DNA from: Pseudofabraea citricarpa
Lineage: Eukaryota > Ascomycota > Leotiomycetes > Helotiales > Dermateaceae
Assembly: GCA_029641185.1 (NCBI GenBank)
Contig: JAPWGK010000017.1
Span: 1,054,001 to 1,118,000 of the forward strand
Direction of reading: 5' to 3'
DNA length: 64,000 nucleotides
Both the position numbers and the translations under genes were made by a program. The notes under the pieces are model-generated. The model was not told where the DNA came from. It saw only the letters and a program-made list of their open reading frames with translations, and made no database searches. This document shows, piece after piece, positions 12,498 to 42,542 of the stretch; position 1 is the first letter of the stretch, and each line of letters opens with the position of its first letter.

Positions 12498-14105
12498 CTA
12501 GTAACCACCAAGTAAACTGAACGGACACTGCATCACCCATGCATTCAACTCCCTTTTCTTGACTATAGTAGAGAATCCATGCCTATCGGGTGTCGAACAA
12601 GCTGGGGTAAGAGTTTCCGAAATCGTGGTATTCAAATACTCGATATGGAACACCGGCTTCCCTGCCTCAATAAAGTCCTGATACTTGTTACAATCGTGGT
12701 TTGCAACACAACCCTCATTCATTTGCCACTGAACCACATCAAGTGTATCATCAATCAATTCCGGAGAGTTCCTCAAACCGATCGACATCTTTGCGTCGTG
12801 TGCTTTGGCTGCTAGGAACCTCACATACTGGACGCTATCTGAGGTAGTCAAGTCAAAGTTGGTCTTCCCCGGCTCATAACCATTCACGTTGTTTGGGTCG
12901 ATACCATCGCAACCCATGTCCTTTGCTCTCTTGATTCTCTTCAGCATGATATCCTGGATCGGCTTCCTTCGAATATCAATCCATCGTTCAGTATCGTTGC
13001 CGTTATAGCTTGCGCCCAAAGTGTCGCCGGGAAAACTGGAAGCATCAGGCTGCCAGCTCTGGTAAGTGCCAGCAGAAAAATGGCAGATAACTCGTCGACC
13101 CGCAGCATGAAATTGAGATACAGTCGTATCGTTGTTCTGAAAGAGATCGATGTCAAAGATATAAGCTCTCAACGAAGGCATGGTGACTGGCTGGTTCAGC
13201 TCGATTCCCCATGTAGTTCCGATGGCTGGATGCCATGCTGCCACCTTATCCGTGCTATTCCGAGCCCGCTCAATCAAAGTTATAGATAGCCCAACAGCTA
13301 TAACTGCTGATCCAATAACAAGAGTAGCTGCAAGAATTATTTTTCGTGTTGACCAGTTCTTCCACCAACTGGCCTTCCGTGTACTTTGCTTTTGATACTT
13401 TGTATTTGGGACATGCACGATATCGGCAAAGGTATTCGTGATTGAAGATGTAGCGGAATCAATGTAGGCATAGACTGATTGCCGGTAAGTCGATTTTCTT
13501 CTTGATGGATCGTATGTCGAACGCCTGAATGTTGATTGTCTCCTCGGCATAGCGGTATATATCGACTGACGAAAGGACGACATCTTTCTTGGTGGCTCTC
13601 CATAAATGGATTGTCTGATGGTAGACTTCCTTCTCGGTGCGGAGCCAAATATAGATTGCCGAAAGAGTGACTTTCGTCGGGGCTGGCTGTCATATTCCTC
13701 CTTTGAATAATCCTGCGCTGGGGATGGCGGAGGCTTGAATAAAAGAAGACCCTTTCTTGAATCAGTCGTTCTTCCTGACGCTGCGGTTGACGGTCGATTG
13801 TCATCGTTCGTCGACACATTGATCGTATCAAAGTAATCGGATTGTTCATCTTCTCTGGTAGGTGTGGGTTCAGCGCTTTCTGCAATGTCGAACCCGACGG
13901 TCCTTGGACCAGCGCGATACTGAGGTGGAGCTGCATAAGAAACCCGGGGATTGCCCATGGGAATCAGGTTTCTGTCGATTCTGCCATACGAATTTTGGGT
14001 GGGGCTTGTAGGACTCGTGCTATATTCATGATTTGGCGGTGGGTTATAGAGTGTCCCAAACTCCTCCCGGATTTTCAAGATGCTCTTCTTACGTTCAGCA
14101 GCCAT
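12498..14105 (-). CDS. ega3: GH114 endo-alpha-1,4-galactosaminidase, membrane-anchored (Ega3-like A)
   Basis: A single exon encodes 535 residues. Residues 1-254 are a long cytosolic tail containing five 15-residue repeats (about 142-213) of the type PRRKSTFRQSIYG. Residues about 255-278 form one hydrophobic helix (IILAATLVIGSAVIAVGL), then comes the GH114 barrel (about 286-535). Recognisable motifs are VICHFSAGTYQSW, MGCDGIDPNNVNGY (acidic residues about 400 and 403) and VFHIEY (Glu about 489), which hold the family's catalytic acids. Known GH114 enzymes cut alpha-1,4 galactosamine links in galactosaminogalactan. A type II orientation would place the hydrolase outside the plasma membrane. The family and the neighbouring deacetylase, epimerase, GT4 and GH135 genes support the assignment. 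The repeated RRxS motifs are unusual. A second, shorter copy lies at 31062-32161. Confidence 0.9.
   Translation of the reverse strand: MAAERKKSILKIREEFGTLYNPPPNHEYSTSPTSPTQNSYGRIDRNLIPMGNPRVSYAAPPQYRAGPRTVGFDIAESAEPTPTREDEQSDYFDTINVSTNDDNRPSTAASGRTTDSRKGLLLFKPPPSPAQDYSKEEYDSQPRRKSLFRQSIFGSAPRRKSTIRQSIYGEPPRKMSSFRQSIYTAMPRRQSTFRRSTYDPSRRKSTYRQSVYAYIDSATSSITNTFADIVHVPNTKYQKQSTRKASWWKNWSTRKIILAATLVIGSAVIAVGLSITLIERARNSTDKVAAWHPAIGTTWGIELNQPVTMPSLRAYIFDIDLFQNNDTTVSQFHAAGRRVICHFSAGTYQSWQPDASSFPGDTLGASYNGNDTERWIDIRRKPIQDIMLKRIKRAKDMGCDGIDPNNVNGYEPGKTNFDLTTSDSVQYVRFLAAKAHDAKMSIGLRNSPELIDDTLDVVQWQMNEGCVANHDCNKYQDFIEAGKPVFHIEYLNTTISETLTPACSTPDRHGFSTIVKKRELNAWVMQCPFSLLGGY
13467..13682 (-). repeat. Five tandem 45-bp units encoding RRKS-type repeats
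   Basis: Within the GH114 gene, five in-frame 15-residue units follow one another (protein residues about 142-213). Each carries a basic-basic-x-Ser core (RRKS, RRKS, RKMS, RRQS, RRKS) followed by an aromatic or hydrophobic residue, R, and a second Ser. The DNA copies have diverged, so the protein pattern appears to be maintained. RRxS is the classical protein kinase A consensus. Confidence 0.8.
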
Positions 14106-14620
14106 TTTGGTATGGAGTTGATAGTATGTGGAAAACTGACAATCACAGTTGGATACTGATGAGAATCAGCAGATGTAGCTTGCGGTTTGAGAATTTCCTG
14201 ATAATAAATCGTTGTGTCGCTTGGGTCTAGAAGGTAGATCACCCGTGCCTATTCCTGCCTTCTTCCGTTCCTGTCAGTCAAAGGTCGGCCTGTGAACGTC
14301 AGATACCTGAGTAGGTGACCCCAGGAATGTGGAAGGCAGATATTAATCCCATTATAGAGATCGTGGGGAGTTCAATGCAGCTGCTTTAGGCTTAATGCCG
14401 AACTTTTATATGATCTATCCTGTGACCGCATTTGGATAATCATTTACCGCAAGCGTGTTGTTTGATTCCGCCACCTCATTACTTGAAGGGGAGTTCAAGC
14501 GGCTCAAAGTCTATACAATTTGGACGCAAGAGGAAAGGTTCTCTATTGACAATAGATCTACACTAAAGTATTTGATTTCGCAGTTCGGCTATTCTGATAC
14601 TATCTCAATCTGCCTACAAG
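14106..14620. promoter_or_regulatory. Promoter spacer between GH114 A and CE18 A
   Basis: These 515 bp separate the GH114 start from the deacetylase stop; both genes run on the minus strand. No ORF is supported. It should hold the GH114 promoter and the deacetylase terminator; no specific motif is distinctive. Confidence 0.5.
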
Positions 14621-16988
14621 CTATGAAAATTCGAAGGTGACGGGAGCACCGTCCAATTTAACCCAAAGTGTTGTAGGATCACTTCCAATCTGTTCCTTTA
14701 CAAAGCCTTTATCATCCAATAGCGGCCTTTCAATCATGACTGGTATAGGCATTTCGCATGTGTTAGCATCACCGGCTCTTACAGTGAATCCACTTATACT
14801 GCGATTTGTGCTTGCATATTGAATGAACGGCTCACATGCATCTACCAACATTCTTCGGTTGAAAGATGCAGCAATCTAGAATTAAATAGTCAGCATTTAG
14901 CTCAGACTGTCAAGGATATTGAGATTACCCACATGGTCATGTTTCAATGTAATTATAGGCCAAGTGACCAGGCGAGCTATGTCTGCAGTTATTGTCTCGA
15001 CCCAAATTTGTAGTAAAGATAATTTCTGTTTTGATCCATTGACGGTGTATTCCTCAACATCTGCTGAGCGTAAATTTGGCTGATGAAACATGTAAGGATC
15101 TGGCAATATTAGAGTTATTGAATCATTAATTCGGAATTATAACATACCGTGGAAAAGGGACAAGAGTTGATTTGTGACAATAAATTGTTCGGCCTCAAGT
15201 AAATCATCCATAATGAACTCATCTGATATCTCTTTGGCAGCAACCCACTCTTCAACATTTACTGCTACAGTATCACTAAAAACTTATTAGTAGAACTTCA
15301 AATAATCTTAGATACGCATACCAGTCATAATAAATTCTGGTTGAGAATCGTGGCGTTACTTGGAACCCATCAAATCCATTCTTGGCCACGTTTGTAAGAA
15401 GTGGCCAATGGTAATTAATCTAGCACAATAGCATTAGCATCTAAGATAACGAGACGCCATAAGAAAAGAAGACGGACAAGGAAAAAACTCACAGGACTCC
15501 TCAACACCTCTCTTGTATTGTCACCAATAGCATTCCAAAGACCATTATCGGACCATGCACGAATCACATCCCCATTATGAAGCCCAGTGATTGCAGGTGG
15601 GATAAGTCCAGATCCACTATACTTGGCAGCCTTGGTAAAATTCATCAGTTCTGCATTTGCAAGATTGAATGAGATCTCCTTGTTTGCATCATGATAAGTC
15701 GCATTATTGAGGCTCATATGGGTGAAAGTATGAGACACAAATCCAAACGCGTCTCTGTTGCTGATATTGAAAAAGAATCGGGCTAGTGGATCGAGAAAAA
15801 TACATTCTCCTGTCCAATCCCATCCTTGATCTTTTGGCCATTGGTTCTTGCCAGTCCCTAGGGGCTTGATGTACTCGAGACTTGTATCTTCTTCCCAAGT
15901 TGGAAAAACTGGTGCATCACATGAATACTCTGTGATATTGAGGCCCGCATTATAGTCGTATATCAAGTTTCCGTTGGCATTGAAGCCAAATTCCGTGAAA
16001 TAAGAACTCCCTTCGTTAAGACGAGAATTAAGGCTGTCCATCCATCCGACATGCTGTTCAAGGTCCTCAGCCCGTAATCGAAAATTGGTATTTGTGTTGT
16101 AGATTGTAGTTTGAAGAAACAAATCGTCGACTGTCACGCCACTTTGATTAGCTAAATGACAGCAAGTTCACATGCTATCTCTTACCTTGGGTTCCTAAGT
16201 ATATACGACGGTATCCTTGTATAGTGCCTCGATATCCCCAGTTTATCCACGCATGGCCAAGGACTGTACTAGTCGCACTCCAGTTTCCAACCGCCAGGAA
16301 GAATGCCATTTGTTCTCGTCCGTCAGCAAATCTGTTGATAACCCCTGCAACAGTTTTTGTACTGAACTGATCATTTGTGTCAAACTCCGCAATGGCTGTC
16401 GTAGTTGATTCCGCTTTGTCCATGATCTTCGCAGGATTATGGAAAAGTCCGACAGTACTAAGTGGCGCAATCCTGTAAACTGTTAGATTATATTCTTTTC
16501 TTGGAGATCTCGGTAGCATTTTACTTGAGACCAGCTCCTGGAAACTCTTCTGCTGCTACACTTTCTATGAGCGATAGTGTTTGCTCAGCCTGATTTTCAC
16601 AACATGCTCCAACAGTCTCGGTACCAAAATCAGTAGTTGGGGCAACACTGAGATGTATCATGCGAACGCCGTAAGTTGTCTGGTAATTGTGTAAACTTTG
16701 CCATTGCCCATCAGTCAGGAGCGAGGCTCCATCTTTCTGTAGCTGAGAGACAGCGACAATAAGTCCATAATTACCACCATGCGTAGCTTCCAAGGGTGGC
16801 AGACCTTTTCCAGGGGTGTCGATCAAATAGGGGTCGAAATTTATTGCATATCCATCTAAAAGGTAGGAGGCTTGATTGATGGCTATATCGTCAACGCCCA
16901 GTACTAATGCTGTGGAATTGTATACGATACAAGATGCAAGGTCAACAAAAAGCAGCGACAAGAAAACAAACAGTAGGAGAATACTCAT
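14621..16988 (-). CDS. agd3: CE18 galactosaminogalactan deacetylase (Agd3-like A)
   Basis: Seven exons on the minus strand are 16988-16525, 16472-16186, 16130-15493, 15419-15322, 15275-15148, 15099-14933 and 14875-14621. Introns are 46-73 bp and all junctions were checked against the intron-poor paralogue at 32976-35536; the total is 678 residues. The start ATG opens a signal peptide (SILLLFVFLSLLFVDLASC). Motifs of the deacetylase fold are TQVDDLFL (Asp about 252-253) and SHTFTHM (His about 384 and 388), the expected metal site. GLIPPAITGLHNGD and YMFHQPNLR follow. The C-terminal domain ends TTLWVKLDGAPVTFEFS. The enzyme partially removes N-acetyl groups from GalNAc residues of secreted galactosaminogalactan. 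Unlike copy B it has no Ser/Thr-rich linker after the signal. Confidence 0.88.
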
Positions 16989-17991: not shown

Positions 17992-19656
17992 TTAATGGGC
18001 CGGTGTCAAGGAAACATCTGGCAAACTGTGATGCCAGTCTTCACCAAAGTGACCCCAGCTTTTGTCAGTATTCTGAATAGTTATTGCTGGTGGTCCGACA
18101 TCTTTAATAGATTCGGTGTGTAGCTCATTTTTAATTCCGTCGCTAAATGTACTCAGGCGGCGAACGACATCTTCGAATGAGTTCGGGTTAGAAGCCAATC
18201 GGGCAAATTTCGCAACCACATCTTCGAGATCAGAGTCGCTGGCAACATCCATACTGGCTTTTCGGAATGCACCAGGATCTTTCAATGCTAATGTAGAGAG
18301 TCTGCGCAGACGCTCATATCCAAGCGGATTTTCTGATGCAAATGCATACACGTCTCTACACATGTTTTGGATTCCAAACTGTGCCTCCCATCCAAGTTCT
18401 GTCATCGCCTTTGCCGTACTAGCTGTTACTGTTCCAAGATCCCCGGGTCTTGCGTCGGATATCGCATAGGGAATATCAGTACCGCTGATGGCTGCAAACG
18501 CTTTTATGATCTCCAATACAGAGTAACCATTGCCAGACCCAAGATTGTATACGTGATAATTCTTCCGAATAGTCGAAGCTGGCTCTTCTGGCGTGAAAGA
18601 TCTTTGTTTCTGGAGAATCTCAGCGGCAGGATCTAAAAGCGCTTTTAGTGCGGCAACATGGCCCCGAGCAAGGTCTTCAACATGAATGTAGTCGCGAACC
18701 CCGGTACCATCGCTTGTGTCATATTCTGAACCGAACACGTAGACCTTACTTCTGCGTCTCTGGTACGCCTGTAATATCACTGGCACAATATTGTTGGGTA
18801 TGCCCTTGGGATCCTCGCCAATGAGACCGCTTGGATGAGACCCAGTTGGATTGAAGTATCGAAGTGCTGTAACATGAAATTTGGGATTGGCAACACAGCA
18901 ATCATTCAAGATCTCTTCGGCCATCCATTTCGAGCGTCCATAAGGGTTGGTAATCAAGCCGCCTCCCGTACCCTGACCGCCCACTTGAACAGCATCTTCC
19001 GATATGTTGGCCTCCTTTCCAGAACCATAAACCACAGCGCTGCTAGAGAACACCAGTCGATTGACCTCGAATCTCATCATGGCATCTAATAAGTTGAGTA
19101 AGCCTGTGATGTTATTGTGATAATAGCGTAGCGGCTCGGAGACGGACTCCCCCACTGCCTTCAGCGCTGCGAAATGAACGACAGCAACAATCGATCCTCG
19201 CTTAGATGCGTTCCCTTCGAAATCCAGCGTTGGAGGCACGTCGTCAATTGAATAATCCAGCATCTTGTAGGCTTCTTTTTCTGCAATGCTGCCAATGTTG
19301 AAAATGTCGAGTTTCATTATAAGTTCTGCGGGATGATCGAAAGTATGCCAAAACTGAAAGACATTCGAAGTTCGCTTCTTGTCGCAGAGGTCCACGGCAT
19401 GGAAGAATAAAGGTGGTAGAGTGTTTATGTCCAACTTGAGACGGGCGAACTCGGCTTTGGCAATGTGGTACACTCGAATAAGAGATTCCATGTGACTATT
19501 GATGAGGTTGTCGATGACAACAACAGCACAGCCTGATTTGAGAATTTGTAGTACTGTATGTGACCCAATGTAGCCAGAACCACCAGTGACAAGCACAATG
19601 GGGTATTTCTTGGTGGAGTCACGGGCCATTGAGGCAGCGGAGATTGTTGCTGGCAT
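17992..19656 (-). CDS. uge3: UDP-glucose 4-epimerase (Uge3-like)
   Basis: A single exon gives 554 residues from the first ATG at 19656; a second in-frame ATG (MARDSTKK) follows ten codons later. The Rossmann motif GGSGYIG (about 25-31), FSSSAVVYGSG and the catalytic YGRSK (about 239-243) identify an extended SDR of the GalE group, as do RYFNPTGSHPSG and GVRDYIHVEDLARGH. The enzyme interconverts UDP-glucose/UDP-galactose and, in the GAG pathway, UDP-GlcNAc/UDP-GalNAc, in the cytosol. The protein is longer than usual GalE enzymes (about 340-370). About 60 residues are inserted between the early beta strands and VVHFAALKAVGES, and about 120 are added after the CRDVYAFAS region. It is divergently arranged with the GT4 synthase gene, sharing a 0.94 kb promoter region. 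Confidence 0.93.
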   Translation of the reverse strand: MPATISAASMARDSTKKYPIVLVTGGSGYIGSHTVLQILKSGCAVVVIDNLINSHMESLIRVYHIAKAEFARLKLDINTLPPLFFHAVDLCDKKRTSNVFQFWHTFDHPAELIMKLDIFNIGSIAEKEAYKMLDYSIDDVPPTLDFEGNASKRGSIVAVVHFAALKAVGESVSEPLRYYHNNITGLLNLLDAMMRFEVNRLVFSSSAVVYGSGKEANISEDAVQVGGQGTGGGLITNPYGRSKWMAEEILNDCCVANPKFHVTALRYFNPTGSHPSGLIGEDPKGIPNNIVPVILQAYQRRRSKVYVFGSEYDTSDGTGVRDYIHVEDLARGHVAALKALLDPAAEILQKQRSFTPEEPASTIRKNYHVYNLGSGNGYSVLEIIKAFAAISGTDIPYAISDARPGDLGTVTASTAKAMTELGWEAQFGIQNMCRDVYAFASENPLGYERLRRLSTLALKDPGAFRKASMDVASDSDLEDVVAKFARLASNPNSFEDVVRRLSTFSDGIKNELHTESIKDVGPPAITIQNTDKSWGHFGEDWHHSLPDVSLTPAH

Positions 19657-20594
19657 CTTGGCTATTGAGTTCAATTAAACTGCTAGTAGTGTGGATGTAT
19701 GTATGATTGCTGGTGCTTCTAAAGACCAAAGTATCATCAAGACTGGGAGTCTTATATATTCTATGGTCACAATTTTAGTTGTTTAAATATGCTTGTGAAC
19801 GATTTAAACACAACAACCATGTATAGTCCGTGGTCAAGGTTCCAGAATCCAAGTGGATGGCGCATTGAAATGAACTGTATCTAACATGGATTCAGATTCA
19901 ATTTTCGTCTCTCGTACTGATCTGGTAACGCACAGCATTCCCGTTATATCCGGTTGCAGAACCTGACTGTTTTCGAACGATTATAGCCTACATTATGATT
20001 TCCCCTGAGTTATACGTTACACGCCCCAGCACCAGAGGACATCGGTTCTTGCCGGATTTATCGAAAGCCTGCTATCACATTCTTTGAGGCTGAAATAGCA
20101 AGACGTTGGCAGGCCAAGTTGCATGTAACTTAAAACAACATTTAGAGTTCAAGAGTACTGATTATTTTAGAGTTTGCCAAGAAAAATTCCAGCACTAGTA
20201 GCCTGTAAGTCTGGCCGAGATCGATGGAGCTAATGCTGGCCGCGAAGAGAGGCGGTGTGGCTGCATGCAGTCTTTTTGCATGCTTCGGTTCATGATCTTT
20301 TCAATCTTCCTCGACTAGTCGCAATCTCGATAATTTTCTACCAACATCTTCATAGTGCTACTGGTTAGAAACCTTAAGCTAAGTAAAGCGAGATAGTCCT
20401 GTTACAAACGATACCATTTCGGAGAGTTGCCACCCCAACCTCCTCAATGCGACTGCTATATGTCGGCTTTCTTAACTAAAGTGAGGCATTACCAGCGTTT
20501 TCTAAACACCGCTCAAACTCGGCAATTTGATTCTGTTCTATCGTTTGTGGTACACTTAATTGTGTTGTGCTCCTCAGAGCTCAATATCGCAGAG
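19657..20594. promoter_or_regulatory. Divergent promoter shared by epimerase and GT4 synthase
   Basis: Both genes read away from this 938-bp region, so co-regulation is plausible. Two copies of TGCATGC (TGCATGCA at 20262-20269 and TGCATGC at 20277-20283) sit 15 bp apart about 320 bp before the synthase ATG. An upstream in-frame extension of the synthase ORF begins within the region (ATG at 20460) and could add 45 residues; the ATG at 20595 is preferred because it directly precedes the conserved-looking N-terminus. Confidence 0.5.
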
Positions 20595-23500
20595 ATGACT
20601 TCATTCTTTCAGCCCGTCGTCTACGACCCGAATGTCAGATATTCCGATGCCCAGTCTAATTCGCAGCGTTTTTTGGTATACACAAATTCAACGCTTGCGC
20701 CGTCAGTGTTGTTCTCGAAATGGTACCAATACCTTGTTTTGATATTGGGAGCTGTCGCGTTTTGTGTGCCTCTATTGAAAGTGGCCGCGGGTCATTTCTC
20801 GGGATTTGCACGGAAGAAGATTAAGAAGTATCGAATTGACAGAAAAGCGTCCCTTATACCGTCTCGTGAACGTCAAGCCGAGGATGATCCATACCAAGAA
20901 GAGGACATTGGTTCTTTTGGTGATGATGATTCATCTTCGGTTCATGAGATGGTTGTATTTCAGCAACCAGAAGGAATATCAGACGTCGAAGGTGTTAAGC
21001 ATGTCAACACTTTGGCATCTGTGAAGTGCTTTAGGGAGATTCGAGAAGGAGATGTTCCCAAATTCCTGCAGTTACCATACGACCTTCATATAATTCCCAT
21101 ACAATATGTTTTGAAACTGGATCAAAGATGGAATTCTCCCCAGGACGACTCACAGCAAGAAAGCAATTCAGTCAGGGTTTCAGTATTCGATGATCTCCAG
21201 CTATCAAACACATGGGTGTCCATTAATGATGCGGATCTTTCAGTTCTTGGTTTTACAAGACTCAACCCGGAAGCAACATCACGGAAGTTAAAGCGGTTGT
21301 GTTATGACAATGAGATCCGAGGTCTGGTCCTCGAGATAAGAAGGCTCTCTATGCTTAAAGCCCTTCTTCGTGCTTTACACCTCGATGGAATACAAACGAT
21401 ACTTTCAACAGACGCATCTCGGCCTATCAAGACGGTGGATTTGGGATTGGTCAGTGGTCAGATTTTTCAGAATGCTTGCATTTTACGTGACGGAACCCGA
21501 CGTGATTTCTTCCAGGCGTCAAACTTGAGAACGGCTCTCTCGTATGCTGCTACTGCACGCCAAGAAAATCCTCAGTTTTTTGTAGGATTCCATGATTTGT
21601 GGGAATCACAGCCAAGACCAGCTGTTATTCGACGGAGTCACAAGATGGCCATCTTTCATGGAGCTATTTTTTCACATGGCTCAGCGGGTGAGCCGAACAC
21701 ATTTTTCTCACAGGCCTGTTTGGGTGCGTTCGACTGGCTTAAACGTGACGACGTTATTCAGGTAAATTCAATGACTGGCAGATGTAACGAGCCTCAACTG
21801 ACAAACTGCAGGCTCAGAATAATTGGCTGAAGTCATATCGGCCTAATGCTGCATACCTTCGCAATAATAGCTTGCCGGCTCAATCAATCATAGATTTGGA
21901 GGGCATCATCCCAAGGATCGTGCAAGATTTTGATCTTGATGCATATAAAAGAGGGAGTGAATTTGACACCGACGAAGACACTGACGAAGAGGATGAAACT
22001 AAGCCACCCGACCTGATGCAAGCACCCCCGAGACCCGACTTTTGGGCAGTATCCAGTCAGGGCAAGGAATTATGCGCTGCTGGATGTTATGACCTTCGAG
22101 AAGAGCTCTTTGACAGCCAATATGCATCAGTAGTGTCAACGCAGAAACATCTTCAGAAGTTGAACATGCTACAGGAATTTATGGAGCGAGATATGTTGAA
22201 ATTGCTTGGGACCCTCGACAAGTATTTGGAAACTGTCTCTGATCCTCAACACCAGTTAACGAATTTGGTTTCCGGACTGCGTTCTGGAGACATCCAGATA
22301 TACCAAGGCCTCGACAGCGGTTTCACCCTTCCTGACTGCCAGGGACACTTCTGGGCAGTATCGCGCCAAGATCCCATGGATAAGATCATTTTATACATCT
22401 CGCTTAAGACTCCAGACATTGTCACTACGGTCGTCCATTGTTATCTTGCCCACCTTGGAGTCTCCCGACCGGAAAGATTTGACGTTGAGATGGATATTCT
22501 ACAATCTATCAGCGATGCTGACCAGCTTCATCCCCGTGTGGATTACGAATTAAATGCGGCAACTTACTCCGAATTGCTGTTCATGGCAGAACAGCTTTCA
22601 ATCACCAGAACAAAACATCCAATCCTGGATAAAGTACGATCTGAATGCGAGAAGCTATTAATCGAAGAGCCAACACGACTTGCATTTATCGAGTTACATT
22701 CACATGAATTACTGAGTCACAGAGCCACAATCTCGGATGTAATTAAAAACCGACTCGAAGCCTTGTCCCGGTATGGGGTGAAATCCCTGCCAGATCTCGA
22801 GAATCTCATAGGCTTATATTCCGCCATCGACAATTCAATTCTGAAAGCACTACTTTCAAACGACGAAAATCGATTGGAAAGCCTTACGTCTCCTGTTTTT
22901 GAAGCCTATCGCGAAAAAACCGAGAATTTTGAAGTTAGCAGCGACCTCTATGCTCTACTTTTCTTCTGCTCACTTCGTCGACGAGCTTACGAGGAGATTT
23001 ACATGGAAACAACAGATCGATGTCCGTTATTTTTACAGGCGAAAGATCAAGCAGCTGTCTTCGCAGAGCTATGGGTGCTTGGTTCGCAGTGCGAGAGGTA
23101 TTTTGGAATAAAACCTCGAGCCCTGGGCCACATAATTTATGACGATTATCGACGGTATTTATCCATGAACCCACCTCCAATCGAGTCGTGGAATGGCGTG
23201 GATGTATTCACAGCCTACCACAAAGTTCAAGACAACGGAAATCAAGTTCTGATTGGTTCAGAAGTCAAACCAAACAGCAACAAGCCTGTTCCCCTTCGGT
23301 CAAGACTCATAAAAGCATCTTTCCTCACAATCTTTTGTGTACCAGCAATAGTCGATGTATGTCTTTTGACCTTTGTGGGTCGTGGGCTTTATTTGACGGC
23401 GTTTATGAGTCTGGAAGAACGTATCATGGCTAATTATGCGACACTTGCTGCCCTGCTTATGACTGCTGGTGTGACTGGCTGGTCAGGAAGCACGGGTGGT

Positions 23501-26500
23501 TTTTACCTCTATCAATCTGGGTTTCACAATCTGAACTTCTTCATGGTTCAATGCCTCTCTGGTGGATTCATGCTAACACTTCTACTTGCATTCTGCGGAT
23601 TCTTCGCGTTTTCCTTCCAGTACAGCTGGTATGGAGGCTTTGTATTCGCAGCCTACTTGATCGTGTTATCAACATATCTGAATTTGCTTGGGGTTATGGC
23701 TACAATGCATCGCGAGGACTCACCTTTCAAGTCTGGTCGCTTAGTCCTCGGCAAATGTCTACTGATTACACTCCTCTCGCCATTTTTATCGTCATTTATC
23801 AACAACCATGACGTGTTGATCTATCTTATAGTTCTTTATCTATTTCTTGCAGTATTACTCTACCAATACTCACATCTTTGCCATGAATGGAATACTTGGC
23901 CTGAGACGATAGCCATTGTGAAAGAGAACGAGATCAATGAATGGTACAAGCATAAAATGACTCGGTTTACAGACGAACCTGAAAAGGAAACAGACGAAAT
24001 CAAGTTTCAGAGCATTGAAGCTTGTGAGGCTTTGTTAGCAGAGGTCGAAAAATACAACTCCAAATCCCGACGACGTTCTGGCCCGGCGGACGACTTTGTC
24101 AAGAAGGTCGCAGTTGGTCATAAGTACGTAATTTGGATACTCAAAAAAGAAAGCAACGGACAACCTCTACCAATTCCATACAGTGGCACCTGGCTAGTTC
24201 AAACAAAACTTGCACTAGCAAATCAGCAACAAATTTGCCGGGGATTGAAAGAACATAGCCCCTTTCTACTGTTTCGTAACGCCAAGTATGATATCGCGCA
24301 GAATGTCGGGTTGTTTCTTGTCGCTTTACTTGATCGATGGATAGCTATTTCGATGAGCGCAAACGGGCACGTCGTTAACATGTACTACAACGCAAGAGCA
24401 AGATACGGCATTGCTTTTGGATTGCTGTACTTCCTTCTCAGTGCTGTCAGTCTTGACGTTGTTCTTCAACGTTATTGGGGTCAAACTGGTCGGCAGTCAT
24501 CTAAAAGACTTGGGAATATCTTCGATTTTGAATCTACAGAAGCAGTAGAAAGTCGCAGGGAAAAGCAACGATGGTTCAAAGCCTTGTTGGAACTATTTTG
24601 GGTTATGGTCTGCATTTTTGGGTTCACAACAATGCTCGTCTGGCTTTTCGTCATTGATCTTCCTCAAATAATTCTCTACTTTGCATACATTGTGGGATAT
24701 TCGGCCGTCATTATCTTTCAGGTATGTCAGGATAACCTTTTTTACCTTTCGCATAACGAGGCTAATAGACATAGTTCAATCGTGTTTTCACAATGGATAT
24801 TAAGATTCATGTACAGATTGTGTTCATGGCAGCTATTGGAGGCTATTTCCTGGGTGTTGTCTTACGTAAGTTTTGCTCGCGGATATATACAACGAGACTA
24901 AATAAGTACAGACTCTCTTCCGCAGACACAGGAATTTCGTTTCAACGACGTCCTATCGCTCTGCCTTGCATCTTTATCCGCCGCTTTTGGAACTTGGCTC
25001 TACTCAGACTTTTGCGATGACGTCTCACAGACAGTTCACATTGCATCCGAAGAGACTACTAACTGGAAACTTTACTCTCAAAAGCTTATTGGCAAGCGCA
25101 ATACTTGTACACGATTAAATACTGTTGAGCTTGATGCTTTGACGGGATCTGAGTGTCATTATGACGACTATAGTACCGAATCTCTGTCGCATGCTATCAA
25201 GCAAGTCATAACTGATGCTTTACTCTCTGAAAGTTCAAATATTTCACATGTTTTGCCGAAAGCGAAACAAATACTCGAGCATGCACGAAATATGTGGAAG
25301 AACCGACAAGTCAGACTTCTTACTGTGGACAGAGATGATTTTGTTGCAGCTGGGGGAGCAGATATTTTCGCTGGAAGTTACCGTGTAAACGGTGTGCTTT
25401 CGATTGTTGTTGGCCTTCCTTCAAAGGCCTCTTGGAAAAATGTTTCTGAGAATGAGTACAAAGAAATTGTAGCTCAACTCACTGCAGAGGCATTATTACA
25501 CGAGTGCTGCGAAGCTATGATGAGCATGTCCCACGCCAATGCTACGATTGCGGAACTGGCACTGAGTCCTGATGAGTTTGTGTCAGCTCGTATGTTTGTC
25601 CAATTTGCTTGGGCAAGTACTGCAGATCTACGGCGTATTGCTGCCAGTACCAACAAGGAGCTTTTGCGTCATATAGCACTTGGATGCGATATGAACGTCG
25701 AGTGGGTCAAGACACCTGAAGATGTTCGAAAAGCCATTCTCGCAAGAGCTGTCGGGCGCCGCTTTGTAAGAACAAAGAATGTGGACAACTGGTTGACAGG
25801 AAGATCCAGTTTACTTGAAATCCACGATCTTTACATCAAGCAATGCCTCTGTATCCACCATGGCGTCATTTGGAGGCTGAAACTCCACGACAAGGCAGGA
25901 TTGAAGTCGACCGATGTCTCCCAAGAAGAATACCATTGGAAAAAGGTGGTACAGGAAACGCCATTCCATCCCGTCAAAGCATGGACTGTTAGGGTCTATA
26001 ATTTCTTGTTTCTCTTCATCACTTTCGTCGCTACGGTAAGCCGCGCTGCACCTGACTGTGGCAGAGAGCTATGGTACACGGTTCGTGCGAACAAGTTCCA
26101 ACCGTTGATAGTTTGGGTCATCTTAAAAGTATGGCGAGTTTGTTGGTGGATGAAGAATTTTTGGATTGGGTCAATATTACTTCCACACAACAAAGTCTAT
26201 AACCAGTACTATGATTGGTTGAGCAAAGGAGCAACTCGTACCCTGACTAATGGTTCAATCACCGAGTCGCATCCTCGTGGCTACCGTTCAGGCTTTTTAA
26301 CTGGCACTCCCGATGGTTTCAATCTCAACATCTACGAAGGCCGTCATAGCACAGAACCCAACCTCCGAGATCATTACTGTGCTACCTACGACAAACAAGC
26401 ACGCCTTGGTAGACTTGTACAGATGAAATACCAAGGAGGAGAACTGAATTCTGCTATCAATTGGGTGTATGCATATGAGGAACAGCAAAACGCCAGTCAG

Positions 26501-29359
26501 CATTATCCATTTTACAGAACTGTTTTTCACCAAAACAATGCATCAGAAGATTGCGAAGAATATTATGACGCCTATGGACGAATTATACGTGGGGAAGTTC
26601 GTAAGAATAATATTCGATACAGCTTCAAATACGCTTATGATTCATTACTATCCACTGCGTCAACAAATATTTTGGCAGCAACCTATACTTCACTTGATCC
26701 GTTGGAACCTTCTGTGTTCGAAGTTTTTTGGTGTTTACCTTCGCCATCTTTCAACGATGATAAACAAGACATTTGGATACCGAGTGATAGGATTCAATGC
26801 TTAATCAAAACAACCGATGACACCGTCGAAGAGTTACGGTGGTCGTATGACCACAAGATGGATCCTACAGTACATCGGACGAGGAAAAATTCTCGCCTCG
26901 ATCCAATTGGGACTGCTGAGATACTTGAAACTTATGTCGATGAATATGGGTTGCTCGCTAAGCCCACCATGAATGCCTTCGTTGATGAAGATCTTTTAGC
27001 ATTTCACCAACTGTCATCAATCAAGTTATTCGCTGCGCGGCCGCTGAGAAAGAAGAATAAGGGGAAGCTCCATTTATCCAAGCCGAGTACAAGTTCGGTT
27101 CGCGAAAGAGATCGTAAAGTTTGCAGCTCTCGTCAAATACCAACTTCGGTTCTTCGTACAAGTTTGTGGAAACAGTGGTCCTCCTCCACAAGTCTGGATG
27201 CAATTACGGCATGTCTAATAGATGAGAAGATCTTGCGCGAAGAACCTCTTCTAAAACGTTATTGGTCTTTCCGAGATGCAGGGGATTTTGCTCTTGCGAA
27301 GGCACAGCTGCACGCGAATCTAGAGTCAATAGTGTCCTCTATTGAGGTATCAGATGATGTCTCGAGAAAGATAAACCTACCAATCAAACCTTCCGATCTC
27401 TTTACGATGGGTTTAAGTAAAGATGCAAACTATGTCATATCAAAACCCGAGGAATCATACATCGATACAGATACTCGAGTCGCAGTCATTTTTACTGATA
27501 CAGGTTGTTGGCCTGATGCCCCTGGTGGTGTTTCCAACTGTAGACGAGATCTTGTCGATGGACACTCAACTATACGCAATTACGCCTTGACAGAGTCGGC
27601 GAATGAGTACGGTATTCCTCGTTTCAACATGGAAACAAATGTCCAGCTTGTAAACAATTTACCTCTTTGGGGCTTGGATGGCAAGTGTCCAAATCATGGC
27701 CTCTTCGAAAACTTGCTTCAGTCCCAAGTCGACAGCCGCATACGAAAAACTCGGATCAAAGAAGACATCGAAGGAACCTTTATTCCCTTGTTGATTGCAT
27801 TTATTCGTGGATGTCGCACACACCGACTGACTACAGAGAATCTTATCGAACTTACTGATGTCGTCTTGAACATCAATGCTTACTTTGAAGAGAATGACTA
27901 TCTTGTTACATGGAACTCTAAGCAGGTACGAACAGCATGGCGAGAAGCATGGCTTTGCGAGTACCTAGATCCCAATGTCTCGAATCCCAACGATGCCTTC
28001 GACATTGAGCGACCTACTTCGCAAGACTTTGACGAAGCTCTTGGGTTGTTTGTCAGCTATTTTTTCGTCTTCTCCGTGCGTGTCCCAGAAGAAGTACCTC
28101 GAGTTTACCAAAGCACACATCATGGAATCAGTAGTTTATACGGCATGATACTCAAAATAAGGAGAGGTACAACCTGGGGTATCTGGGACCATGCCATTAT
28201 GTTGCGAGAAAGCTTGCTCAATATCAGTCCGGCCCAGTGTATTCTGTCTATTGCGGTCCAGACCATGTTGATCGGTGCTATGAAAGTCGCCGCACATCTG
28301 GCTTACATGCATGCTGATGTCATTCTTCCATGTACTGCGATCTATAATCCGTAAGTTTTACATTCTTGAGTTCTTACGGCTACTAACTAGGAATCCAGAA
28401 TCTGGGAAGCAGAAATTGGTAGTGACCAAGGGTTGAGATCAAGTTCAAAGCTCTTTGACCGCAAAATAGACCCCATAACAAATGGAATTAGCAGCATGGA
28501 CAAGTTCAAGCCAGTCGGAAAGCCTCGGACACAGGATCCAACTACTATTATGTTGTCTAATGTCCAGTTCATCAAAGACGTCAAAAATGCGATTCTTGCT
28601 GCTGGAGTCATTATTAACGATTTTGGCTTCAAGAATTACAATCTCATAGTCTATGGAGCCCAAGACAGGCAGCCGTCATACGCCATTGAGACAGAGGAGC
28701 TTATCTCGAGATTAGGTATCGGCGAAACAGTCAAGTTAGGGGGATTCGGTTCACCAAGTCAAGTCCTCAAAGATGCTTGGCTCTTCATGAATTCTTCCCT
28801 TTCAGAGGGTCTTCCTTTGGCAATTGGAGAAGCTGCACTTTCTGGTGTTCCAATTGTGGCGACAGAAGTGGGAGCTACAGCTCAAGTGCTTACAGATGCA
28901 GATGATCCCAACATCCTCTATGGAGAGATTGTTCCTCCAAATGATCCGGTAGGCCTTGCCAGGGCGCAAATACGTCTTCTCTCTATGATGGGACCTTGGG
29001 CAAAATATACGACCGATGACGAACCAGTTCCGGATTTGCCGGCGATATTCACCCCTGATGATGTTGAATGGATCACAAAACGAATGCACCAAAAAGCAGA
29101 CGATCGTCAAGCATTGGGTTTGAGGCTACGCGAAGTTGTGCTTCGAAAATTCAACGGTGATCGATATCTTCGAGAACATGAACAGATGTACTGGGTTCAG
29201 CGACATCTGGCGACCCAAAGGGCTGACCATGAATTGGAACAGATCAAGCACAGCCATCCGAAGTTCGGTGAGACAATGATGCCAAAGATGCTTGAGCCAG
29301 CAGACAACGGAAGTATGAAAGGAAGTTGGCAAAAGTTCAATCGAAAAGATCTTTTGTGA
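20595..29359 (+). CDS. gtb3: Giant membrane glycosyltransferase, GT4/PelF-like (Gtb3-like)
   Basis: Exons are 20595-21761, 21812-24865, 24926-28350 and 28399-29359, with introns of 50, 60 and 48 bp, all in phase, giving 2868 residues. One helix lies at about 44-62. A soluble region follows, then at least seven hydrophobic helices between about 885 and 1370. A long extra domain (about 1410-2250) precedes the catalytic part. The GT4 module starts near 2260 with TDTGCWPDAPGGVSNC, resembling the start of PelF-type transferases. It contains STHHGISSLYG, and ends with the donor-binding signature EGLPLAIGEAALSGVPIVATE near 2685. PelF polymerises the GalNAc/galactosamine polymer Pel in bacteria; by analogy this protein builds galactosaminogalactan from UDP-sugars. 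The helices suggest coupled export. The sph3-like gene starts 280 bp downstream on the same strand. Confidence 0.88.
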
Positions 29360-29639
29360 TAGACCGTTGAGATTCAATGAGGCACAATGGCAAGGCATGA
29401 TGGCATGGTCGGTTAGCCTGGTGGAGACGCAACCACGTGCCACTGCGGAATTTGTTCCCTGTAGCGCTTATATAGTTTTGACCCACCTTCATTCTTTTCT
29501 GGCGTTTACCTCGTAACTTTCTTTTGTCTCCTATTCACACATTCCATAACAACTCACATGTAATATAACCAAGAATCGACACAATTACCATCCTAACCGG
29601 AGAACGATTTCTTTAAGCGAGGGGACTAAGCTTAACTCA

Positions 29640-30452: not shown

Positions 30453-31061
30453 GTTTGAACCTCTTCCTCTTCCCGGAATGTGGATGGGTGTACATTGGCG
30501 GACACTACATTTATACTTTTCCGATCGTCATATTTGAATAGAGAGAATTAATATGCTTGCAGAAGTCACTTAAGATGATCGAATGACTCCTGATTTTAGA
30601 AACTCCAGACGGCTGCATTCTGGTACGAGGTAGAGTTGCAGTAGTCACGTGTTGACGGAATTATTGTAACGAACCACTTCTGTCTAGGTAAATATGTATA
30701 TATTCTGGGTGTCGAATGAAATTCGAGCAAACATTTTCCATGTAGCTCCAAGGAGTTACACCATGATAAGATGCCCTAAAACTACCCGAGAAGTAGAACG
30801 GGTTTCAAAATGTTTCGCGCGAAGGCCAGGAATGTTAACAAACTGAGTTGCATTCATGGAGAGAGGTTATTTCACGACACTTTGTGTTTCCCAGACAACA
30901 AATCAAATTATATTCAAGTTATGGTTTCTTAATATCCCCCACCAAAAAAAAAGAAAAAAAAAGCTACAAGTCCTAAAGACTTGTTGATTACCGCGCCAGT
31001 ACAAATACGCACACCCAGCAAAAAGCCAACTCCAACTTGAGATCAATTTTCTTCAAACAGA
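30453..31061. other. Convergent spacer between Sph3-like and GH114 B genes
   Basis: The 609 bp contain no supported gene. It includes an A-rich run (AAAAAAAAAG then more A) near 30944-30962 and a CACGTG core near 30645. It should hold two converging 3' ends. Confidence 0.5.
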
Positions 31062-32161
31062 CTAGCATACATCCACCCAAGCATCAAGATCCATCTTCTT
31101 CAAGATCGTTGAAAATCCCGACGTTGACGGCGCATCGCAAGTGGCTGCCTTGGTAGCTGCACTAACATCCGGAGCCTCGGTAGGGTATTCGATATGAAAG
31201 ACTGGTTTATCTGCAGCAATGAAGGGCTCGAACAGATCACATTCGCTGTACACGTTACACTGCTCGTTAATATCCCACTGCATCATATCCACGACGCGAT
31301 TCACGATCGATCCACCGTTCTTGAGTCCAATGGCTAGGCTGCGGTTATGTGCTGCATCTGCGAGAAATGTCAGGTAGTCGACGGCTGTGTCCTCGGTCAG
31401 ATCTAATCCAGAGTCGTTGCTGTAGCCGTCTACGTTGTCGGGATCTACACCATCACATCCTTTTGTTACTGCTAGGTCCATTCGCGCAACCATGATGCTT
31501 CGGACATTGGGTGAGCTTGTGTTAAGCCACCACTCTCCCTCCCAGCCATCAAGACCTATAAGTACAGATATTAAAGTCAGTACTTATTGCATAGATGTAT
31601 TCTTCAATCAAGAGGAATGGATCACTTTCTCAAATAATGCCTCGAAGCCTTTGGGAACTTCACAAGTTCACAATTCCACGTACCTTTGCCATAATCTGTC
31701 TTTTGAAAGCTTCCAGAGTCCGGTCGAAAGTCTTCATAACTACCTGCCGAAAAGTAGCATATGACTTTTCTTCCCAGACTGTGGAGTTTTGCGATTGTCT
31801 CCGGCGTGTTGATAAAAAGGTCAATGTCATAGGCTTCTGCTACAACTGACGTGTCGTCCAAGACAGTCGATAATACTATCTGCCATGAGGTTCCTGCCTG
31901 CGGCTGCCAATAAGACCCATTGGCTGTTGTGTTATTTGTACTTGGTGTAGTGGTGTTCGAAGAGTCGCCGTCTGTGCTTGAATTATCCGAATCGTTTCTA
32001 TCGTGCAATCCAACACCGAGCCCTATTGGTAGACCAATTATCAATACCACAGCAGCAATGGCCAATATTGTGAATAAGACTTTATGTCGTTGCCACAGAT
32101 TCGCAAGGGAGGTCTTGGGAGGCCCATCAGACTGCTCGTATCCACTCGATTGAATCTTCAT
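31062..32161 (-). CDS. ega3: GH114 endo-galactosaminidase, membrane-anchored (Ega3-like B)
   Basis: Exons on the minus strand are 32161-31684 and 31555-31062 around a 128-bp intron (GTACGT donor, TATAG acceptor), giving 323 residues. The chosen ATG gives a short cytosolic tail (about 26 residues). One helix follows (VLFTILAIAAVVLIIGLPIGLG), then a Ser/Thr/Asn-rich stalk with several N-glycosylation sequons. The GH114 domain contains TSWQIVLS, VICYFSAGSYEDFRPD, GCDGVDPDNVDGY and VFHIEYPTE. The role is cleavage of galactosamine-containing galactosaminogalactan at the cell surface. Compared with copy A it lacks the 250-residue tail with RRxS repeats and has an intron. It is divergent from deacetylase B across 814 bp, a pairing that suggests shared regulation. 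Confidence 0.9.
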
Positions 32162-32975
32162 CTCAGCGTAGCAGGGCAGGGCAGGACAATGAAAGCAGAA
32201 TGCCTGTTCAGGTAAAAATGCATTTCGAGATTGAGTGATGATCCTCTCGATTTGTATCTTCTCATTCCATCTTGACGCTCGATTCCCCAAGTCAATCTAG
32301 ACCCGCGGGGTCCCGAGCCGGACTTGAACAAGCGAGCTATTGCTTAAGCGACGCCACCAGAGGCACCCTGTCCTGGAAACAGCAGCGCTACCATGTTAAA
32401 CTCTATGGCCTAGCGTCGGGTAGGTAAATATCTAGAATCTGTTACCGGACTTAGAGCAATCTTCTTACCAGGCAACTAGTATCTGCCGGATGCAGCTGCA
32501 TCGCGAATCTCAATATCGCTCACGACGACCATCGCCTTCCCCGCACGGCACAGATTCTCGATGAAAAACTTACGCTTAAGTCTAAAGCACGATAGTAATC
32601 TAGCTAGATGCTAGTTTTATAGAACTAGAGATGTGTAAGTATTTGATTTACTAGAGCGAAGGGCCAATGACTGGCTCTTGTTCGGAGGAGTGTGCTCCTC
32701 AAGTGATAGCCACTGTTTTTGGCAAGCGATCAGCTCTCGGCTCGAGGCTGGTCACTTCTCCGCTTCCGTGCTTCCTAAATTCTTCAGCATGGATAGTCTC
32801 GGCTCTGGAACTTTTGAGATTCGCGAAAATTTCAGGATCTCCGAGATGTGATCACCATGACAATATCGTTTATCGGGTATATAGTTCGGCAGGAACATCT
32901 TCGAATCCTGATCATCATTCCTTCGTCCACAACATCCTCACCCTCCTCTCATTCCACTCTCATTAACCGCTCACC
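32162..32975. promoter_or_regulatory. Divergent promoter of GH114 B and CE18 B
   Basis: The 814 bp lie between two diverging cluster genes. One sequence, TCGCGAAA at 32821-32828, fits the StuA-type consensus WCGCGWNM. StuA is a reported regulator of GAG genes in Aspergillus, so this is a candidate site, but a single match in 0.8 kb is weak evidence. Confidence 0.4.
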
Positions 32976-35536
32976 ATGGTCAACATTCTCTGTGCTTTGT
33001 TTCCCCTCCTTATTGGATGTCCTAAGCCGACAACGACCACCTCATCGGCCAAAACAACCTCTACTTCTTCCTCGGTGAAGTCTTCCTCGTCTTCAATCAA
33101 GACAACAAGTAGTTCCAATATTGTATCATCGATCGCTGCTTCGTTGACAGGCACAACTTCAAAGACGTCGAGCGTCAAGCTGAGCAGTTCAAGTGCATTG
33201 AGCAGTTTAAACGGCTTAAGCAGTTCACTTGGATCAAGCAGCTCACTTGGCTTAAGCAGTTCCTCGACGTCGAGCAGTGCAAGCAGTTCAGGCACTATTG
33301 TGGTCAACCAGACCGTCAATGCGATCACCGACGAGGTTATCCCCACCGGTCACCAGGGGCCTACTGTAGCAGCTGCACCTCCAGTATCTACTGTAGCCAC
33401 TGTGCTCGATGGCAATACGGTTAACCTGAATACAACAACGGCGACAAATGCAACTGCCCCGCTCAATGCCACTATCGACATAACTGCCACGAGCGTTTCG
33501 AGCACCGTCTTGATCATTGCTCGCAGCAATGCCACTGCCTACTCTGGATACTCCGGCCTGAGCGGCTACAGAATTCCCTACCAAATCCTTGTTGTTCCCC
33601 AAGAAGGCGCCGTCCTGCCTGCTTTGAATAGCAGTCTGAGAGCTGGAAATTTCGGTGCCATCGTCGTACTTTCAGAAGTCAGTTACGACTATGGAGCTAC
33701 TGGATTCCGCAGTGCTCTCACCAGCGACCAGTGGCTTAGCCTGTATGCCTACCAACTTGCCTTTGGTGTCCGCATGGTCCGCATGGACGTCTATCCGTCA
33801 GCGGATTCGGGAACCGAAGCTCAGGGAGGCTGCTGTGCGTCCGGCCAAGACCAAACAGTATCCATCAGCGACACGTCCAACTTTCCCACCGCAGGTCTCG
33901 TTAAGGGAGCTTTGATGAGCACGACTGGCTTGTACCATTATCCAGCAAACATCATCAACAAAACTCTCGCTACCGAGTTCGCCCAGTTTGGAATCAGTGA
34001 TGGATATCCTCAGGTTTCCACTGCGGGTGTCATCAACAATATTGCCGGTCGCGAGCAGATGGTCTTCTTCACCAGTTCCGCTACAGACTGGAGTGAGACT
34101 TCGAACCTGCTCCAGCACGCATGGATTCATTGGGCTACTCGAGGTTTATACACCGGATTCAGAAGAGTCTACTTCAGCACCCAGGTCGATGATATGATGT
34201 TGAAGTCTGGTACATTTGGCTCCGATGCTACCTTCCGTGTTCGCCCAGACGATATGACCAACATTAAAAACTGGATGGTCACCCTGAACAACAAGCTACC
34301 CGGCGGCAGTAACTACTTCATGGAGATTGGATACAATGGCAACGGCAACATCGAGAACTCCACTTTCGGCGATGATTCCAGTACTGCATGTGGCCAGGGC
34401 CCAATCGAGTACGACAGTCAAGGAACTACCGCTCTAGAGTTTCAGAAGCCCCTCGGAACCGGTGATGATATCTGGATCACTTCTTCAAAGACATACCCAT
34501 ATACCACTGCTTGTACCAATAAGGACCCTCTACTTGTATGGTGGTCTGACCCAAGTAATCTGAACGCGTTTGCTCATATTTCTCACACCTTCACCCACGA
34601 GAGTCAGAACAACGCCACTTTCAGCGACATCAACTATGAGATCTCGTGGAACCAGGCATGGATGAAGCAAGTCGGAATAGCTGGAGCACAAAGATTCAGC
34701 CCGAAGGGTCTCATTCCGCCAGCTATCACTGGTCTCCACAACGGCGATGCACTGAGAGCCTGGAGCGTGAACGGACTCACCAACTGCGTCGGTGATAACA
34801 CTCGACGTGTCCTCGCAAACCCGAATAACGAGCATTGGCCACTGATCTCAACCGTAGCCGACAACGGATTCGACGGTATCCAGATCATCCCGCGCTATGC
34901 AACTAGAATCTACTATAACTGCGATACCATGAATTGTACCGTTTCCGAATGGATCGCTACGTCAGCCGGTGCGGGTGACATCAACACGCTGTTGAATTTC
35001 GAGAGACAAGGAACCGGACGACAGCTGCTCGCACTGAGACACGATGCATACATGTTCCATCAAGCAAACCTACGCCAGATCGACGTCGATTCCGTGACGA
35101 TCAATGGGGTAAGCAGTCAACTATCCTTGATTCAGATGTGGATCGAAACCGTCGTACAAGAGATGATTCGCATCGTGACCTGGCCCTTGGTCAGCATCAA
35201 GCAAGACGATGTAAGTTTTCCTCTCTGTTTTCGGGTAGAACTCAACTAATCCAAATCGAATAGCTCGCAACCACCTTTGTGAACCGTATGGCGGCAGACC
35301 AGTGCGGCGTCAAGATGACGTACAATATGAACCCCGTCGCCCAGACAGTAACAGGCGTCACACTTACCACGAACGGCAACACATGCAGTGTCCCAATCCC
35401 TATCACCGTTCCCGGAACCGTAACCAGCACCCAGGGCTTCCAGACAGAGCAGCTCGGAAGCGATCCGTTGACTATCTGGGTTAAGATGGCTGGCTCTCCT
35501 GTTTCTTTCACGCTCTCTTCGCCTTTGCCTTGGTAG
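32976..35536 (+). CDS. agd3: CE18 galactosaminogalactan deacetylase (Agd3-like B)
   Basis: Exons are 32976-35210 and 35264-35536 around a 53-bp intron, giving 835 residues. The N-terminus is short and hydrophobic (VNILCALFPLLIGC), a likely signal peptide. A Ser/Thr-rich low-complexity linker follows (about 19-108), which would be heavily O-glycosylated. The deacetylase part has STQVDDMML (Asp about 405-406) and SHTFTHES (His about 537 and 541), the metal-binding motifs expected of this carbohydrate esterase family, then GLIPPAITGLHNGD and YMFHQANLR. The C-terminus ends DPLTIWVKMAGSPVSFTL, as in copy A. It deacetylates GalNAc in secreted galactosaminogalactan, making the polymer cationic and adhesive. 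The single intron coincides with the last intron of copy A. Confidence 0.93.
33055..33299 (+). repeat. Ser/Thr-coding low-complexity tract in CE18 B
   Basis: This stretch consists of imperfect repeats of AGCAGTTC-like units (for example AGCAGTTCACTTGG recurring near 33220-33260) and encodes the Ser-rich linker (SSLGSSSSLGLSSSS). It is in frame and absent from copy A. Confidence 0.75.

Positions 35537-42508: not shown

Positions 42509-42542
<34 letters not shown>

What the first reader, a model, noticed from the sequence alone, without database searches (positions are those of the whole stretch)
12498..35536. Expanded galactosaminogalactan cluster with duplicated hydrolase and deacetylase
Seven adjacent genes belong to exactly the families of the five-gene GAG cluster known from Aspergillus fumigatus: GH114 (two), CE18 (two), epimerase, GT4 and GH135. 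The sequence shows the families and their motifs; the pathway is established for Aspergillus; that this fungus makes such a polymer is inference. The duplication suggests two deacetylase/hydrolase pairs, perhaps for different stages or for surface-bound and released polymer.
Basis: partly seen in the sequence, partly recalled or inferred. Interest (0 to 1): 0.9.

Follow-up and report, generated by a model that had tools for sequence, protein, structure and literature searches.

The report
Second sticky-polysaccharide gene cluster, enlarged
A filamentous fungus carries, besides an ordinary five-gene set for a sticky sugar polymer, a second seven-gene set in which one polymer-cutting enzyme seems to have lost its cutting residue and may now only bind the polymer.

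Summary
In detail: seven adjacent, apparently intact genes at 12498-35536 are GH114, CE18, UDP-glucose 4-epimerase, a giant GT4 synthase, GH135, GH114 and CE18. This is a galactosaminogalactan (GAG)-type cluster, with three corrections. (1) It is not the only one: the same genome holds a five-gene GAG-type cluster on another contig (C12). The two synthases are 26-27% identical; the window's is the closer to Neurospora and Metarhizium homologues. (2) The outer 'b' pair is not a recent tandem copy: CE18b and GH114b are 43% and 35% identical to CE18a and GH114a and form their own lineage, shared with Phlyctema and, for CE18b, Coleophoma cylindrospora. (3) GH114b has Asn where Ega3's nucleophile Asp189 sits; 41 of 43 aligned GH114 proteins have Asp, including its 85% identical Phlyctema orthologue. 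The rest of its fold is conserved, and it has a long cytosolic tail with basic-serine repeats. So 'two deacetylase/hydrolase pairs' is probably wrong: pair b looks like an active deacetylase plus a membrane-anchored, polymer-binding pseudo-hydrolase. Polymer production and the binding role are inference.

The parts
12498..14105 (-). GH114b: probable type II membrane protein, 535 aa; cytosolic tail 1-252, hydrophobic segment 253-281, GH114-fold domain 290-535 with Asn405 at the nucleophile position
13470..13679 (-). Five imperfect repeats of about 15 residues (R-R/K-x-S followed by R-Q/R-S) in the cytosolic tail of GH114b, residues about 143-212
   Evidence: motif positions 143, 158, 173, 188, 202 (protein pattern only; Tandem Repeats Finder on the DNA did not report this array)
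14621..16988 (-). CE18b (Agd3-like deacetylase, 678 aa, hydrophobic signal-peptide-like start, no Ser-rich linker); exons 16525-16988, 16186-16472, 15493-16130, 15322-15419, 15148-15275, 14933-15099, 14621-14875
   Evidence: model; Pfam; catalytic residues kept
17992..19656 (-). UDP-glucose 4-epimerase (Uge3-like), with an insert and a C-terminal extension relative to solved epimerases
   Evidence: Pfam; NCBIfam galE; PDB alignment
20460..29359 (+). Giant GT4 synthase (Gtb3-like), about 2911 aa, four exons 20460-21761, 21812-24865, 24932-28350, 28399-29359; 12 hydrophobic segments
   Evidence: model; Pfam GT4; hydropathy; 61.6% to Coleophoma crateriformis P0162, 36% to Neurospora crassa P0238, 38% to Metarhizium acridum P0212
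29640..30452 (+). GH135 (Sph3-like), 270 aa, no TM segment found in the single-exon model
   Evidence: Pfam; PDB 5c5g alignment with the D-E pair and the later E conserved; hydropathy
31062..32161 (-). GH114a (Ega3-like), 323 aa, hydrophobic segment 24-54, exons 31684-32161 and 31062-31555, nucleophile Asp and acid/base Glu kept
32976..35536 (+). CE18a (Agd3-like deacetylase, 835 aa, about 170-residue N-terminal stretch, largely Ser/Thr-rich), exons 32976-35210 and 35264-35536

Best explanation
The seven genes are a second GAG-type exopolysaccharide locus. Shown: the families, open reading frames, conserved catalytic residues in CE18a, CE18b, GH114a and GH135, a second five-gene set on C12, and Asn at the nucleophile position of GH114b. 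Inferred from the Aspergillus, Neurospora and Metarhizium systems: the epimerase makes UDP-Gal and UDP-GalNAc; the membrane GT4 synthase polymerises and exports an alpha-1,4 GalNAc/Gal chain; GH135 acts on acetylated chain during synthesis; CE18a and CE18b deacetylate the chain outside, making it cationic and sticky; GH114a trims deacetylated stretches. Inferred and new: GH114b no longer hydrolyses. It binds chain through its GH114 cleft and, being a type II membrane protein, holds the polymer at the cell surface or reports on it through its 250-residue cytosolic tail.
For: Pfam and PDB matches. Matches to all five families on C12 within 2222442-2242120, about 19.7 kb. CE18 residues D377, D378, H510, H514 and H668 kept in 123 of 123 aligned rows (120 of 427 hits plus 3 own), R613 in 122 of 123 (one gap), M666 in 122 of 123; both window copies keep all (roles from PMC7229062, passages). 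GH114 nucleophile column: D in 41 of 43, N in GH114b, A in metagenomic P0039; acid/base E in 43 of 43 (roles Asp189/Glu247 from PMC12054363, passages; numbering fixed by the 6oj1 chain range 73-318). On the window lineage since the split from Phlyctema, 2 of 58 columns conserved at 90% and 2 of 74 at 80% changed, and both are the Asp residues of the catalytic motif. Inactive GH enzymes that keep binding their polymer and act like lectins are described in PMC8546845 (passage). The tail is 77% identical to that of Phlyctema over 279 columns.
Against: No expression, polymer or binding data exist here. The b lineage also differs at positions conserved in other GH114 proteins, even in Phlyctema: loop-tip Trp154 is Asn, and Q, Y, E, R positions have changed, so its ligand may not be ordinary deacetylated GAG; though Trp is not universal (two Tyr in the F. 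solani enzyme). The nucleophile change is seen in one genome only; a base-calling error cannot be excluded. Counting the two catalytic changes, the low number of changes at conserved columns is not striking (P 0.012-0.17); only with them set aside is it (P 0.0005-0.015), a post hoc split; at a 70% cut-off one further change (V316I) appears. The R-R/K-x-S part of the tail repeats occurs five times in the window protein but once in the Phlyctema repeats; only R-Q/R-S is widely kept. The GH135 lacks a membrane anchor in the simplest model. If the loss is recent, conservation of the rest says little about present role.
Confidence: 0.6

Rival explanations
1. Ordinary redundancy: the window is a GAG cluster whose b pair is fading. 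GH114b has just lost activity and is on its way to a pseudogene; CE18b is a spare deacetylase.
For: Only one genome shows the loss; the Phlyctema orthologue keeps Asp. CE18b has lost a conserved Cys and carries Phe at the CBM Trp292 position in 3 of 3 clade members.
Against: GH114b frame of 535 codons intact; apart from the two catalytic Asp, no change on the window lineage at columns conserved at 80% or 90% (post hoc). CE18b keeps all tested catalytic residues and is found in three genera.
Confidence: 0.24
2. One reading: both pairs are active deacetylase/hydrolase pairs for different stages or for bound and released polymer.
For: Both CE18 are predicted active. In Phlyctema both catalytic residues of GH114b are present, so this may be true in that relative.
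Against: GH114b of the window lacks the nucleophile. Neighbouring-group rescue as in beta-hexosaminidases does not apply to an alpha-linked, 1,2-cis sugar (general knowledge, not tested).
Confidence: 0.1
3. The locus makes a different polymer from GAG, for example another alpha-GalN-containing or Pel-like chain, while C12 makes GAG.
For: Between the clusters the synthases are 26-27% identical, the epimerases 35% and the GH135s 27%.
Against: The window synthase is 36-38% identical over full length to Neurospora and Metarhizium homologues, and clusters of these genera make GAG (PMC8224951, PMC11356417, passages). The Metarhizium and Aspergillus synthases are themselves only 28% identical (PMC8224951), so 26-27% does not imply another product. 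The synthase GT4 part is 47% identical between the clusters; CE18a and GH114a are 59% and 55% identical to the C12 ones.
Confidence: 0.15

Closest known systems
GAG biosynthesis cluster of Aspergillus fumigatus (uge3, sph3, ega3, agd3, gtb3)
   Same: Same five families; catalytic residues conserved in CE18a, CE18b, GH114a, GH135
   Different: Two extra genes (CE18b, GH114b) and a different gene order; the order on contig C12, not that of the window, follows uge3-sph3-ega3-(agd3)-gtb3 (locus numbers of four genes seen; that of agd3 recalled)
GAG cluster of Neurospora crassa (NCU05132-NCU05137)
   Same: Order synthase, epimerase, small gene, GH135, GH114, CE18 is close to the window core; synthase homologue P0238 36% identical over full length (that P0238 is NCU05132 was not checked)
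   Different: No second CE18 or GH114 in the passages read; epimerase and synthase swapped in the window; no small gene
Metarhizium robertsii GAG cluster
   Same: Five families; the synthase homologue of Metarhizium acridum is 38% identical
   Different: Five genes only in the passages read
Ega3, GH114 endo-alpha-1,4-galactosaminidase (PDB 6oj1)
   Different: Asn at nucleophile Asp189, Asn at loop-tip Trp154, 250-residue cytosolic tail with repeats

Membership tests
GAG biosynthetic gene cluster | GT4 synthase, epimerase, CE18, GH114 and GH135 genes together | tested here: met
GAG biosynthetic gene cluster | Catalytic residues for deacetylation and for both hydrolases present in at least one copy of each | tested here: met
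   CE18a/b; GH114a; GH135 D-E and E aligned with 5c5g
GAG biosynthetic gene cluster | GH135 with N-terminal TM segment (as described for Sph3 in PMC11356417) | tested here: not met
   Highest 19-residue hydropathy 1.22 in the 270-aa single-exon model; the C12 copy reaches 3.25. An unseen upstream exon is not excluded, so this lowers but does not settle the point.
GAG biosynthetic gene cluster | Co-regulation and production of partially deacetylated GalNAc/Gal polymer | not testable with these tools
   no transcriptome or chemistry
GH114 by sequence and fold (GH114b) | Match to GH114 profile and to the Ega3 barrel | tested here: met
Active endo-alpha-1,4-galactosaminidase (GH114b) | Nucleophile Asp (Ega3 Asp189) | tested here: not met
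   Asn405; D in 41 of 43 aligned
Active endo-alpha-1,4-galactosaminidase (GH114b) | Acid/base Glu (Ega3 Glu247) | tested here: met
   43 of 43
CE18 deacetylase (CE18b) | Motifs CM1 D-D, CM2 HxxxH, CM3 Arg, CM4 Met-x-His | tested here: met
   roles
CE18 deacetylase (CE18b) | CBM87 domain with exposed aromatic at Trp292 | tested here: inconclusive
   CBM87 profile matched (3.5e-63); the position is Phe in 3 of 3 CE18b clade members, against W in 81 and Y in 39 of 123 rows

The most novel reading that the evidence does not exclude
GH114b is a membrane-anchored receptor or tether for the fungus's own cationic exopolysaccharide: a hydrolase fold that lost its cutting residue but keeps a binding cleft, with a cytosolic tail of basic-serine repeats that could be phosphorylated and signal or anchor, encoded beside its own deacetylase (CE18b) inside a second GAG cluster.
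Probability: 0.22. Interest if true: 0.78.

Novelty: new variant of a known kind. Interest (0 to 1): 0.5.

Why it matters
GAG-type cationic polymers glue fungal biofilms and appressoria to surfaces, and how the polymer stays attached to the cell after export is not settled (general knowledge). A natural hydrolase-to-binder change in the same cluster would give a direct, testable answer for one lineage. A genome with two GAG-type sets whose synthases are 26-27% identical also lets one ask whether one fungus makes two GAG-like polymers. The listings of my paper searches showed no report, by title or abstract start, of two GAG clusters in one genome or of a nucleophile-less GH114; only open-licence papers were searched, most were not opened, and supplements, which may list such clusters, could not be read.

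Tried and rejected
A-to-I RNA editing turning the Asn codon into Asp: the base before the position is not the U that fungal editing favours (recalled rule), so not pursued. Repeat-induced point mutation as cause: the context does not fit the CpA target (recalled rule; by eye). Substrate-assisted catalysis with Asn (as recalled for GH85): rejected because an alpha-linked 1,2-cis sugar cannot form the oxazoline (general knowledge). Recent tandem duplication of the a pair: rejected by identities and trees. A whole-genome search with PF11997 (DUF3492) gave no match, not even in the window; the synthase protein search was used instead.

Limits. Coleophoma cylindrospora GH114b: not among the 40 hits (556 candidates), inconclusive. 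Type of the C12 synthase: no Aspergillus Gtb3 sequence was in hand; one search lists 120 of 332 hits, none of the named ones Aspergillus; to these 120 the window synthase is 35-62% identical (median 38) and the C12 synthase 26-34% (median 28), but the 120 were collected with the window query, which biases this. Gene order in other fungi could not be inspected. The CE18 tree is a quick one on 120 of 427 hits plus 3 own, and flags unusual composition for CE18b and its Phlyctema relative; in the GH114 tree (40 hits plus 3 own) P0002's join with the b pair is flagged as a possible long-branch artefact.
Full report
Check of the observation. The window is bases 1054001-1118000 of contig C9 of a 44-Mb, 43-contig genome. 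The closest named proteins are from Phlyctema vagabunda and Coleophoma, both Helotiales, Dermateaceae, so the fungus is most likely a leotiomycete near these; the species is not known. Spliced models without internal stops could be made, without transcript support. The synthase has about 2911 residues, four exons and 12 hydrophobic segments.

A second cluster. Searches of the same genome with the GH114, Agd3_CE and Spherulin4 profiles and with the window synthase and epimerase also hit contig C12, within 2222442-2242120. Reading that stretch gives epimerase (-), GH135 (+), GH114 (+), CE18 (-), synthase (+). The epimerase and GH114 are open frames, a CE18 model without stops was made, and GH135 and the synthase were seen as open exon pieces. 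This order follows the A. fumigatus locus numbers seen (uge3 07910, sph3 07900, ega3 07890, gtb3 07860; agd3's place recalled). The window core (epimerase, synthase, GH135, GH114a, CE18a) is nearer to the order described for Neurospora crassa. Identity between the two clusters: synthase 26% over 2580 columns of roughly joined exons and 27% over 2784 with the last exons added, its GT4 part 47% over about 230 residues; epimerase 35%, GH135 27%, GH114a 55%, CE18a 59%. So synthases, epimerases and GH135s are far apart, while the a-copy GH114 and CE18 are nearer. In the CE18 tree CE18a and the C12 copy fall in one 26-row set (17 rows with names I know as leotiomycetes, 7 unnamed, 2 own) but in different subgroups. 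The window cluster may therefore be a mosaic. Beyond these, one lone GH114 (C41) and two lone GH135 genes (C16, C17) exist.

Synthase relationships. Of 332 hits, the 120 listed run from Coleophoma crateriformis (72% in the searched region) through Arthrobotrys, Aureobasidium, Fusarium, Metarhizium, Neurospora and Trichosporon asahii. Full-length BLAST gives 61.6% to Coleophoma, 38% to Metarhizium acridum and 36% to N. crassa. Over all 120 the window synthase is 35-62% identical (median 38) and the C12 synthase 26-34% (median 28); the window copy scores higher for 120 of 120, as expected of hits collected with the window query. Metarhizium and Neurospora clusters have been shown by others to make GAG (PMC8224951 and PMC11356417, passages seen). 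This supports GAG as the product of the window cluster; it is not proof.

The b pair. CE18b is 43% identical to CE18a, and GH114b 35% to GH114a. In the quick CE18 tree CE18b groups with Phlyctema P0045 (85%) and Coleophoma cylindrospora P0153 (63%) on a long stem, SH-aLRT 100. All tested catalytic residues are kept in the three, save that Coleophoma has Phe at Y620; they share loss of a conserved Cys and a Phe at the CBM Trp292 position. CE18b is therefore predicted to be an active but altered deacetylase. Two CE18 proteins with different contig lengths were also listed for Oculimacula yallundae and Rhexocercosporidium sp., so two loci are probably not unique to this fungus.

Topology and tail of GH114b. 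One hydrophobic segment at 253-281, with several basic residues just before it, fits a type II membrane protein. Before it lie 250 residues with five imperfect repeats of about 15 residues, R-R/K-x-S then R-Q/R-S. Six RQS/RRS sites are present in the window protein and seven in Phlyctema, but R-R/K-x-S occurs five times in the window repeats and only once in those of Phlyctema; the DNA repeat finder did not report the array. Basic-serine motifs can be kinase sites (general knowledge); phosphorylation is not shown.

Other differences. The window GH135 keeps the catalytic D-E and E but has no TM segment (maximum hydropathy 1.22; C12 copy 3.25), unlike Sph3 (TM described in PMC11356417). CE18a has a Ser/Thr-rich N-terminal stretch that CE18b lacks.

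Interpretation. The locus most likely makes a GAG-type polymer in addition to C12. The most interesting element is GH114b: a hydrolase fold with the cutting residue gone, next to its own deacetylase. [quoted passage not shown] Confidence is moderate because the change is seen in one assembly and no functional data exist.

Novelty. GAG clusters in many Pezizomycotina are known (28 species in PMC4817252, passages; Agd3 homologues in 311 species, 45 of them bacterial, in section 13 of PMC7229062). Two clusters in one genome and a natural nucleophile-less GH114 inside one were not seen in the listings of the open-licence searches; this is limited evidence of novelty. I rate it a new variant of a known kind.

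Noticed in passing
36094-37965 (-): A phosphohexomutase (best PDB match 4hjh, called phosphomannomutase, 265 bits) lies directly beside the cluster and could feed sugar-nucleotide supply; membership in the cluster is unknown.
   Followed up: partly
G000 contig C12, 2222442-2242120 (L019, L020, L023): A second five-gene GAG-type cluster; part of the finding now, but outside the given coordinates.
   Followed up: yes
570-1466, 3071-4969, 9585-10595 (+): Left flank: fungal transcription factor domain, GH3 glucosidase, FAD-binding domain; on C12 an oxidase-like ORF also lies upstream (L018:7521-8036, by eye, no family search).
   Followed up: no
38108-48585 (-): Right flank: ankyrin protein, class 3 lipase of 1218 aa, sugar transporter.
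   Followed up: no
P0039 (metagenomic GH114 protein): A second natural GH114-type protein with the nucleophile column changed (Ala).
   Followed up: no
G000 contigs C41, C16, C17: Lone GH114 (C41, DPDN motif kept) and lone GH135 matches (C16, C17).
   Followed up: partly
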